From a bacterium (GTDB taxonomy: Bacteria > Patescibacteriota > Patescibacteriia > SG8-24), in the NCBI GenBank assembly GCA_023246195.1, contig JAHFIW010000013.1, positions 1 to 34,673 on the forward strand: DNA of 34,673 nucleotides, written 5' to 3'. Under the pieces are notes generated by a model. The model was given only the letters and a program-made list of their open reading frames with translations. It was not told the DNA's origin and searched no databases. A program made the translations under genes and the position numbers. Below, one piece after another: positions 2,810-8,457 of this stretch; position 1 is the first letter of the stretch, and the number at the start of each line of letters is the position of its first letter.

Positions 2810-2838
2810 ATGATAGCCGTTCTTACCCGAAACGTCAC
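2810..2838 (-). promoter_or_regulatory. Possible promoter for bcp
   Basis: The minus strand has GTGACG (2838-2833), a 17-nt spacer and TATCAT (2815-2810). A second TATCAT lies at 2802-2797. It overlaps the 3' end of the hydrolase gene. Confidence 0.35.
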
Positions 2839-3845
2839 GGCGAAACATGCGCGGAGGCGGCCAAGTTCTTGCCGAAAAATCCCAACAGCGCCTGCGCAAA
2901 CGCGGTACGCGAGGCCAGGTCGGCGTTACCGTCGGTATACCAGAACTGGACATTGGCATTGTCCTTCATGCGGCTACGGAGAATGTCCGCATGTACGATA
3001 GGCACGCTCGCGTCAGCGCGCGAATGAATGACCAATACGGGCACCTTGATCGACGAAGCTACCGCGGAGGGCGACACGGCATCGACATTCATCCGAAACA
3101 GCAGCTGCACGAACTCCTTGGCGAACCAGGCGAAGGCCGGCCGCGCGGGCCCGAGATAGCCGTACGGATCTCCCGCGACGATGCCGAAGTCGGCATAAGC
3201 GTCCTCAGTCACGACGGCGGTGACGGCCGGATCGCGCGCGGCAGCCATCAATGCCACGGCCCCGCCCATGGTAAATCCGTAGATACCGATGCGTTTCACG
3301 CCTTGTTCCTTCAGGTAACGGACAGCCGTCATGGCATCCTCGACTTCTCGCAGCCCCATGGTCGTATACTTGCCGCTGCTTTCGCCGAACGAGCGGAAGT
3401 CGATGTACAACAACCGGTGAGTCTGCCCGAGGAACGCCGTCCGCGGCAAGATCGAACCCTTGTCGGAAGCGTAGCCAGGCAATACCAGGATGGCATCATC
3501 TGACGCCGTGACCGGAGCCACGTCCCAAGCGGCGATGTCGTAACCGTCGCCGGTGTGCAGCGTCAGCTTTTTGAACGACAGCTTGTACTGGGCGGGAGTA
3601 TCGGCAGAAACGAGATGGTCGGGACAGGCCATCTGCCATAGGCCAAAAGCCTCCATGCACATGAAGGGCAGCATCACCGCCAGCGCGGCTTCGAAAAAGT
3701 AGCGCATGACCGTCCGCCAGGTCAGCGGAGTCCTGTCGGAAACCGCCGACACCTCCTCGAGTCCGGCAGGCGTGCGCATGCCGACTTCCTCAAACCGTCT
3801 CTCAGCATCGGACATCTCTGATTGCGGAGGAAGCTTCTCTGTCAT
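2835..3845 (-). CDS. Membrane-anchored alpha/beta-hydrolase-fold protein with altered catalytic residues
   Basis: A 336-residue protein with a cytoplasmic N-terminus, one membrane segment (about residues 44-68) and an alpha/beta-hydrolase domain. The fold is clear: VLPGYASDKGS (oxyanion region), DFRSFGESSG, the nucleophile elbow and VLVIHSRADASVP with the acid Asp278. The elbow reads GFTMGG, so Thr192 replaces the usual serine. The segment where the catalytic histidine belongs (TDGNADLASR) has none. It may be a non-catalytic or unusual member. The start at 3845 is chosen because the archease gene's terminator (3919-3946) lies just upstream, which excludes the longer reading from 3977. Confidence 0.8.
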   Translation of the reverse strand: MTEKLPPQSEMSDAERRFEEVGMRTPAGLEEVSAVSDRTPLTWRTVMRYFFEAALAVMLPFMCMEAFGLWQMACPDHLVSADTPAQYKLSFKKLTLHTGDGYDIAAWDVAPVTASDDAILVLPGYASDKGSILPRTAFLGQTHRLLYIDFRSFGESSGKYTTMGLREVEDAMTAVRYLKEQGVKRIGIYGFTMGGAVALMAAARDPAVTAVVTEDAYADFGIVAGDPYGYLGPARPAFAWFAKEFVQLLFRMNVDAVSPSAVASSIKVPVLVIHSRADASVPIVHADILRSRMKDNANVQFWYTDGNADLASRTAFAQALLGFFGKNLAASAHVSP

Positions 3846-4776: not shown

Positions 4777-5697
4777 TTAGTTGGCTGCGGTAGCCGAGCC
4801 GCTGACGTTGGCATTGATCATGCCGGACGGCTTCTTCGCATTGTCCTTCTTTTCGTCCGGGAAGGCAGCCTTGAGGGCCTTGCGATCGGCTTCCATGGCA
4901 ACTTTGAAAGCGGCAAAGGCCTTGTCGAGCGCGACGCGATGAACGGAGGCCAATGCTTTTGCGGACGTACCGACCTTATCGATGCCGGCGGTATCCGTCT
5001 TGAACTTGGCGCGAGCCGCCTCGATGGTCTTCAGCATCGTGGCGCGGGCATCGGCACTTGCCACGCCAGCGGCACAGTCGGACTTGGCCTTGTCGAGAGC
5101 TGCTTGAATCGCAGCCTGCATCGCAGTCACGGCGGCGTCAATCCTGGTCGCATGGTCGGCGCTGACCTTGTCCATGCCAGCCTTGAAATCGGCATTGGCC
5201 TGTTCGACGGCGGCCCGACGCGTGTCGAGCGCGATCTTGCTATTGGCCTGGAAGGAAACTACCGCCGCCTTTTGCGCATCGGTCGTGGCCCTGCCGCTCA
5301 GCATCGCGACGATCCCGTCGACTCGGACATCCTGCGTATCACGTGTCGTCTTGAGGTTGGCATCGCGCGAAAGCTGACGATCGCGCAAGAGTGCATCGCG
5401 TTTGGCACGGTCACCGTCGATCTTCGACCGCATGCCGTCCACCTGCTCGGCCGTCAGCCGCATGCGGCTGTCGATTAAGGCGCAGAATTGCGCAGCAGTC
5501 GGAACTGTCGCCTTACCGCCGACAGTGACGCCGTCCTGACCAGAGCTTCCGAGATTACCGGTACGCACCCGGACCGTTTCATTGGCACCCGAAGTGCCGG
5601 CTGTCACGCCCGCGTCCGCGGCATTCGCAAAAGGCGCGAACATCGTGGCGGCAAGCGCCACCGTGACGATCGTCGAGACGAGCTTACTTGATTTCAT
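4777..5697 (-). CDS. Exported helical protein of unknown function
   Basis: A 306-residue protein. The N-terminus MKSSKLVSTIVTVALAATMF ends in an Ala-Asn-Ala signal peptidase I site. The rest is Ala/Lys/Asp-rich with repeated 'MDKVSADHATRIDAAVTAMQ'-like helices, probably coiled coil, and a low-complexity C-terminus ending SATAAN. I do not recognise a family. The start at 5697 lies inside the 3' end of the upstream lipoprotein gene (14-nt overlap in another frame), which implies translational coupling. A longer reading from 5829 would overlap that gene by more than 140 nt and bury the signal peptide. Confidence 0.8.
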   Translation of the reverse strand: MKSSKLVSTIVTVALAATMFAPFANAADAGVTAGTSGANETVRVRTGNLGSSGQDGVTVGGKATVPTAAQFCALIDSRMRLTAEQVDGMRSKIDGDRAKRDALLRDRQLSRDANLKTTRDTQDVRVDGIVAMLSGRATTDAQKAAVVSFQANSKIALDTRRAAVEQANADFKAGMDKVSADHATRIDAAVTAMQAAIQAALDKAKSDCAAGVASADARATMLKTIEAARAKFKTDTAGIDKVGTSAKALASVHRVALDKAFAAFKVAMEADRKALKAAFPDEKKDNAKKPSGMINANVSGSATAAN

Positions 5698-6043
5698 TGT
5701 CATAGGAAGCAGTGCCAAAGGCTTTAGCCGACGCCTTGTCGGAATCGACTTCCGAGGCGTCATTTTCGACATCCTTATGCGCGTCAATCTCGGCGCTCCC
5801 GTCCTTGAGGATGGCATCGACCGAGGCATCGATGGTCGCGGGGATGACGACCTTGTCGGCCGCGTTCACGCCAGCGTCAATGCCGGCATTCACGTTTGCG
5901 CCAGCCTGCACGGTGTCAGGCTGCGCATTGTTAACCGGTACCGCGTTCACATCCGTCGAAACCTGCTGGCCAGCCGCGCAGCCTGCCCCCACGAAAAGGA
6001 GCGTGGCAGCGGCCAACGCAAATGACATGCGTTTTCCCATCAT
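5684..6043 (-). CDS. Small lipoprotein of unknown function
   Basis: About 119 residues. It starts MMGKRMSFALAAATLL and has a lipobox-like VGAGC, so it is probably lipid-anchored on the outer face of the membrane. The mature part is rich in Asp, Asn, Ala and Val with no known domain. It overlaps the following exported-protein gene by 14 nt, forming a two-gene unit. ATG codons at 6043 and 6040 are equally plausible. An extended -10 (6093-6101) gives a leader of about 45 nt. Confidence 0.75.
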   Translation of the reverse strand: MMGKRMSFALAAATLLFVGAGCAAGQQVSTDVNAVPVNNAQPDTVQAGANVNAGIDAGVNAADKVVIPATIDASVDAILKDGSAEIDAHKDVENDASEVDSDKASAKAFGTASYDNEIK

Positions 6044-7647: not shown

Positions 7648-8457
7648 ATGCACCCACGCATTGCCGCCGCCCTCTCTGGCCTGGCCCTTGCTGCCGCAGC
7701 GCTCTCACCGCTGGCCGCGAATGCCGCTGACCTCCACGGAGGAGACCTCATCAAGACCGCAGGAAACACCTCGGTTTATTATTATGGCAGCGACTTCAAG
7801 CGCTACGTCTTCCCCAACGACAAGACCTTTCACACGTGGTACGCCGACTTCAACGCGGTAAAGACGATTACGCTCGACGAGCTCTCCTTCATCCCCATCG
7901 GCGGCAATGTCACCTATAAGCCGGCCGCGCGCCTGGTGAAGGTCACCACCGACCCGAAGGTCTACGCCGTCTCCAAGAACGGCATTCTCCGACCCATGAC
8001 CTCGGAACAGGTCGCCTCGGCGCTCTACGGCGCGCACTGGAACCAGATGGTCGACGACGTGCCGGACGCCTTTTTCACCGACTACCGCGCCGGCTCGCCC
8101 GTCACCATCGCAGCCGACTACAACATGCCCGGCCTGACTGCCGGCGTCCCGAACATTAACGTGGACAAGCGTCTCGTTGATCCGCCGAACGGTTACGTTG
8201 ACGTCATCCAGAATGTCGGATTCTCTCCGAAGAACGTCACCATCGACCGGAACAACGCCGTCACCTGGATTTCGCTCGACAACAGCGCGCCCACGGTCGC
8301 GTCAAACCCGCACCCGACGCATACCGACATCCCCGGCTTCGAGACGACGACGATCCCCATGGGGCAGACATGGTCGTTCGTCTTCACCGCGGTCGGCACG
8401 TGGGGGTATCACAATCACAACTTCCCCGATCAGGGCGGAACGGTGACGGTAAGGTAA
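7648..8457 (+). CDS. Exported wall-domain protein with C-terminal cupredoxin-like domain
   Basis: A 269-residue protein. Residues 1-27 are a signal peptide ending Ala-Asn-Ala. Residues about 32-160 form the patescibacterial surface domain (DLIKTAGNTSVYYYG, KRYVFPND, TWYADFNAV, IPIGGNVTYKPAARLVKV, DVPDAFFTDY). Residues about 185-269 form a cupredoxin-like beta sandwich (VGFSPKNVTI, VTWISLDNSAPTV, GTWGYHNHNFPDQGGTVTV). The usual type-1 copper Cys and Met are absent; His222, His225, His255 and His257 cluster where ligands would be. It probably acts on the cell surface. It may bind copper in a non-blue way or be purely structural. AGAG lies upstream of the ATG. Confidence 0.85.
   Translation: MHPRIAAALSGLALAAAALSPLAANAADLHGGDLIKTAGNTSVYYYGSDFKRYVFPNDKTFHTWYADFNAVKTITLDELSFIPIGGNVTYKPAARLVKVTTDPKVYAVSKNGILRPMTSEQVASALYGAHWNQMVDDVPDAFFTDYRAGSPVTIAADYNMPGLTAGVPNINVDKRLVDPPNGYVDVIQNVGFSPKNVTIDRNNAVTWISLDNSAPTVASNPHPTHTDIPGFETTTIPMGQTWSFVFTAVGTWGYHNHNFPDQGGTVTVR

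What the first reader, a model, noticed from the sequence alone, without database searches (positions are those of the whole stretch)
2835..3845. Alpha/beta-hydrolase with a Thr nucleophile position and no catalytic histidine
The elbow reads GFTMGG (Thr192 from codon ACC) where the family has Ser, and the C-terminal loop that should carry His reads TDGNADLASR. Fold motifs and acid Asp278 are kept. Two of three triad positions changed in an otherwise well-preserved protein suggests a membrane-anchored pseudo-hydrolase or a different chemistry.
Basis: partly seen in the sequence, partly recalled or inferred. Interest (0 to 1): 0.6.

Follow-up and report, generated by a model that had tools for sequence, protein, structure and literature searches.

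The report
Patescibacterial esterase lacking its catalytic residues
This gene encodes a membrane-anchored, esterase-like protein that keeps its shape but has lost two of the three residues such enzymes use for chemistry, in a small bacterial family where every other surviving copy found is also altered at or near the active site or frame-broken and most species have no copy, so it is probably a dead enzyme kept only as a folded protein or on its way out.

Summary
The 336-aa protein at 2835-3845 (-) is an alpha/beta-hydrolase (Pfam DLH/S9/S15 hits; AlphaFold pLDDT 87; best PDB match the Pyrococcus furiosus esterase Pf2001). Thr192 sits at the nucleophile elbow, Asp309 at the catalytic-His position, and Pro123 replaces the His of the oxyanion "HG" motif; acid Asp278 is kept. 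None of this is normal for the family. In 43 homologues from outside the window's GTDB family, the nucleophile is Ser in 43/43, HG-His is present in 43/43 and the catalytic His in 42/42. Within the family, all four surviving orthologues are altered, each differently: the window (T192/D309/P123), G008 (Gly nucleophile), G005 (His moved or replaced) and G004 (residues intact, reading frame broken). Six of ten family genomes have no copy, two of them with the gene cleanly absent from the syntenic site. The window copy has the longest end branch in the tree, yet its frame is open and 19 of 20 non-catalytic invariant columns are kept. Best reading: a fold-retaining, catalytically dead pseudo-hydrolase in a lineage that is losing the gene. 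Whether it is still useful or only recently dead cannot be decided here.

The parts
2835..3845 (-). alpha/beta-hydrolase-fold protein, 336 aa from Met1 (314 aa if started at Met23), catalytically incomplete
3627..3719 (-). N-terminal membrane-anchor helix (residues 43-73; predicted helix, peak Kyte-Doolittle 1.6)
3477..3479 (-). Pro123, where 43/43 homologues outside the family have the His of the HG oxyanion-hole motif
3270..3272 (-). Thr192 (ACC) at the nucleophile elbow, where 43/43 have Ser
3201..3203 (-). Asp215 after strand beta6 (Ser in 40/43 homologues outside the family; Ala in the other three family members)
3012..3014 (-). Asp278, the catalytic acid position, kept
2919..2921 (-). 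Asp309 (GAC) at the catalytic His position, where 42/42 have His

Best explanation
The gene encodes a single-pass membrane-anchored protein descended from an active Pf2001-like serine esterase. In this genome it has lost the nucleophile Ser, the catalytic His and the HG oxyanion motif, so it cannot carry out the normal Ser-His-Asp acyl-enzyme mechanism. The fold has been kept under weakened selection, so the product is most likely a folded pseudo-hydrolase on the membrane that at most binds a ligand or a partner protein, in a bacterial family where the gene is dispensable and repeatedly lost. Shown: residue changes, their absence outside the family, retained fold motifs and open frame, fast evolution, absence in sister genomes. 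Inferred: lack of activity, membrane orientation, residual binding role.
For: Outside the family the HG-His is 43/43, Ser 43/43, Asp 42/43 and His 42/42; the window changes three of these four. Of 24 columns >=95% conserved, the window departs at 4; 3 of these are catalytic or HG, against 1 of 20 other columns (Fisher p 0.008). AlphaFold gives a confident fold (pLDDT 87.1, pTM 0.82) with Pf2001 as best PDB match (E 9e-22). The window has the longest end branch of 47 (1.83 against a median of 0.43), yet no stop; in neutral simulation only 4.5% of runs stayed open at 80% identity and 1% at 70%. Codon-position GC (0.61/0.46/0.75) matches neighbouring genes. Other family members: G008 has Gly at the nucleophile and HG->HD, G005 lacks His at the aligned position, G004 is frameshifted. 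No orthologue in 6 of 10 family genomes. In G002 the archease and bcp genes are directly adjacent with no room for the gene, and the equivalent G006 interval also lacks it.
Against: No expression or activity data. No second genome of the same genus was held, so conservation of the dead state, the hallmark of a useful pseudoenzyme, could not be tested. Family-wide loss also fits a gene that is simply dying. G005 keeps Ser and has a His four residues upstream, so it may be active; the G004 frameshift could be an assembly error.
Confidence: 0.62

Rival explanations
1. Recently dead gene: the esterase became unneeded, took hits in the active site, and has not yet collected a stop or frameshift; no function at all.
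For: 4 of 10 family genomes hold the gene and all four copies are altered; 6 of 10 lack it, two with a clean syntenic gap; the sister-lineage copy G004 is frameshifted.
Against: Very long end branch with an open frame and coding-like codon-position GC, so selection acted during most of that branch; the changes concentrate on catalytic columns rather than being spread over invariant structural ones.
Confidence: 0.27
2. A different chemistry at a remodelled site, e.g. a carboxylate-rich pocket formed by Asp215, Asp278 and Asp309 next to Thr192 at the ends of adjacent strands (acid catalysis or metal binding).
For: All four positions follow strands beta5 to beta8, where active-site residues sit; S215D and H309D both add acids and are found only in the window copy.
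Confidence: 0.06
3. Still a hydrolase: Thr192 acts as nucleophile with another base.
For: Thr has a hydroxyl group; Asp278 is kept.
Against: No His elsewhere after residue 192 except ordinary family residues 274 and 285 and H333 in the low-confidence tail; the HG motif is also changed; a review consulted names Ser, Cys or Asp nucleophiles and describes the His as totally conserved (PMC11878206).
Confidence: 0.03
4. Sequencing or assembly error.
For: Draft genome in 47 contigs.
Against: Three separate in-frame codon changes plus surrounding changes (HGE -> DLA); sister copies altered too.
Confidence: 0.02

Closest known systems
Pyrococcus furiosus esterase Pf2001 (PDB 5g59/5g5c/5g5m/5lcn)
   Same: Best sequence match (phmmer E 7e-20, residues 70-306) and best fold match (Foldseek E 9e-22, TM 0.84 by target length); shares the DFR-x-x-G-x-S-x-GKYTT motif.
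   Different: Pf2001 has GFSMG at the elbow; the window protein has Thr, no catalytic His and PG in place of HG.
Uncharacterised membrane-anchored alpha/beta-hydrolases of Patescibacteria, Nitrospirota and DPANN (43 homologues gathered here)
   Same: N-terminal membrane helix, domain order and motifs; the window is nested in a Patescibacteria-dominated clade (100/99 support).
   Different: All 43 keep the nucleophile Ser and all 42 complete ones keep the catalytic His.
DPP10/DPP6 (inactive S9B alpha/beta-hydrolases)
   Same: Single-pass membrane proteins with an alpha/beta-hydrolase domain whose catalytic Ser is replaced (Gly in DPP10, Asp in DPP6), inactive as peptidases but functional (PMC4350108); G008 has the same Ser->Gly change.
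   Different: Animal proteins with a beta-propeller, a known ion-channel partner and a conserved dead state; His kept in DPP10.
DUF687 (PF05095) of Chlamydia
   Same: Bacterial alpha/beta-hydrolase-fold family lacking catalytic residues, proposed to act at the membrane as inactive homologues (PMC11878206).
   Different: A whole conserved family with a C-terminal six-helix membrane bundle; the window case is one lineage of an otherwise active family.

Membership tests
alpha/beta-hydrolase fold superfamily | Alternating beta-alpha core with G-x-Nuc-x-G elbow | tested here: met
   elbow G-F-T-M-G
Active serine esterase (Pf2001-like) | Nucleophile Ser at the elbow | tested here: not met
   Thr192; 43/43 homologues outside the family have Ser
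Active serine esterase (Pf2001-like) | Acid after strand beta7 | tested here: met
   Asp278
Active serine esterase (Pf2001-like) | His after strand beta8 | tested here: not met
   Asp309; no His between residues 286 and 332
Active serine esterase (Pf2001-like) | HG oxyanion-hole motif | tested here: not met
   Pro123-Gly124
Pseudoenzyme | Fold kept, catalytic residues lost | tested here: met
Pseudoenzyme | Dead state conserved among close relatives | tested here: inconclusive
   No congeneric genome held; other family members differ from it and from each other
Pseudoenzyme | No catalytic activity but a cellular role | not testable with these tools
   needs expression, assay and deletion

The most novel reading that the evidence does not exclude
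The window protein has a rebuilt site in which Asp215, Asp278 and Asp309 surround Thr192, giving an alpha/beta-hydrolase-fold protein with a carboxylate (metal or acid) centre instead of a Ser-His-Asp triad.
Probability: 0.05. Interest if true: 0.7.

Novelty: new variant of a known kind. Interest (0 to 1): 0.34.

Why it matters
It is a small, clear example of how an enzyme ends: within one family of reduced-genome bacteria the same gene is found with different catalytic residues changed, frame-broken, or cleanly missing, while relatives outside keep the full triad. It also warns against annotating such proteins as active esterases. If the dead copy proved useful to its host, it would be a bacterial parallel to DPP10-type pseudo-hydrolases.

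Tried and rejected
A protein query against genome contigs found nothing; an alignment query was needed. Viral contigs held no relatives and plasmids only distant ones below 30% identity among the rows shown, so a phage or plasmid origin is not supported. Full neutral decay was rejected by the long open branch. A conserved Thr-type subfamily was looked for in the order, class and phylum samples; no aligned homologue has Thr at the elbow. Another His near Thr192 could be judged only by sequence and secondary structure because model coordinates are not released. dN/dS was not attempted: the nearest orthologue is only about 36-40% identical and synonymous sites would be saturated. Literature searches for natural Thr nucleophiles at a GXSXG elbow found nothing relevant.

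Full report
What is there. The ORF at 2835-3845 (-) gives a 336-aa protein with an N-terminal membrane helix (residues 43-73) and an alpha/beta-hydrolase domain. Pfam finds DLH, Peptidase_S15 and Peptidase_S9 above their cut-offs. No NCBIfam model reaches its cut-off. The nearest solved structure by sequence and by fold is the P. furiosus esterase Pf2001. AlphaFold2 with 29 sequences gives mean pLDDT 87.1 and pTM 0.82. Basic residues just before the helix suggest that the domain lies outside the membrane (inference). The true start may be Met23 (3779), which has a Shine-Dalgarno-like sequence that Met1 lacks.

The residues. Thr192 (ACC) is at the elbow, Asp278 at the acid position, Asp309 (GAC) at the His position, and Pro123 (CCT) at the first position of the HG motif. 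I gathered 43 homologues outside the window's GTDB family from Patescibacteria, Nitrospirota, DPANN archaea and a few other MAGs. They show Ser 43/43, HG-His 43/43, Asp 42/43 and catalytic His 42/42, the remaining row being cut short near its end. Three further homologues from the phylum sample also have Ser and a His in the C-terminal loop (by eye). The window changes three positions that are otherwise practically invariant. Each needs one base change from a Ser or His codon (TCC>ACC, CAC>GAC, CAT>CCT; read from the sequence).

The rest of the fold is kept. Of 24 columns conserved at 95% or more, the window departs at four: H123P, S192T, H309D and P237A. The last is also changed in G004 and G008. 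Catalytic or HG columns 3/4 against others 1/20 gives Fisher p = 0.008. This is one lineage and a small table, so it is suggestive rather than proof.

The window's family. Ten genomes of the family are held. Four carry the gene and they form one clade (97/98 support). Neighbourhoods overlap: archease and PEBP flank it in the window and in G008, PEBP lies downstream in G004, and a sodium/calcium exchanger-like gene is adjacent in G005 and nearby in G004 (gene names by eye from the translations). All four copies are altered, each differently. The window has T192/D309/P123. G008 has Gly at the nucleophile and HG->HD but keeps His. G005 keeps Ser, but its His sits four residues upstream of the usual column and Gln stands in its place, so its state is ambiguous. 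G004 (Parcubacteria bacterium SG8_24) keeps the residues in two reading frames, i.e. a frameshift, which could be an assembly error. Six genomes have no orthologue; their only profile hits belong to a separate short hydrolase of about 230 aa and to still weaker matches. In G002, archease is followed directly by bcp, the two genes that flank the hydrolase in the window. In G006 the G004-like gene order is present without it.

Rate. The window has the longest end branch of 47 rows (1.83); G008, the other copy without a Ser, is third (1.65). G004 and G005 have 0.91 and 0.95, against a median of 0.43 for all rows. The hydrolase is less conserved than its neighbour PEBP in the same genome pairs: window-G008 33-34% against 48%, and G004-G008 43-48% against 63%. 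Neutral drift alone would have closed the frame: at 80% identity to the start 4.5% of simulated ORFs had no stop, at 70% 1%. Codon-position GC matches neighbouring genes. So the protein was under some selection for most of its history, with catalysis the part given up.

Mechanism. In these enzymes Ser attacks the carbonyl with His as base and Asp orienting it; a review describes the nucleophile as mostly Ser (Cys or Asp in some) and the His as totally conserved (PMC11878206). Without Ser, His and the HG motif this route is not available. I therefore take the product to be a folded but catalytically dead membrane protein, perhaps with a binding role, in a lineage where the gene is being lost. 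DPP10 is a precedent for a membrane-anchored alpha/beta-hydrolase that lost its Ser and has a non-enzymatic role (PMC4350108), and DUF687 for a bacterial family without catalytic residues (PMC11878206). A completely useless, recently dead gene is the main rival.

Limits. No coordinates of the model were available, so spatial closeness of Asp215, Asp278, Asp309 and Thr192 is inferred from topology only. No congeneric genome was held. The GTDB names of the handles are hidden; organism names come only from genome contigs titles.

Noticed in passing
window 3779-3845: The start at 3845 has no Shine-Dalgarno-like sequence, while Met23 (3779) is preceded by GAGGAAG; homologues also start near the membrane helix, so the N-terminal 22 residues may not be translated.
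   Followed up: partly
L064/L076 (G004, Parcubacteria bacterium SG8_24): The orthologous hydrolase gene is split over two frames although its triad residues are intact: pseudogene or assembly error.
   Followed up: partly
L054, L055, L056: Homologues in MAGs labelled Gammaproteobacteria and Deltaproteobacteria nest inside the Patescibacteria clade: horizontal transfer or binning contamination.
   Followed up: no
G000:C4:23937-24374 and similar in seven sister genomes: A second, shorter (about 230 aa) alpha/beta-hydrolase is present in most genomes of the family.
   Followed up: no
window 7648-8457: Probably secreted protein whose C-terminal part looks like a cupredoxin-like domain (HPTHTD...GYHNHNFPDQGG), by eye only.
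   Followed up: no
window 4777-5829: Ala-rich, probably secreted protein with a weakly similar counterpart (24% identity) near the hydrolase in G005.
   Followed up: no
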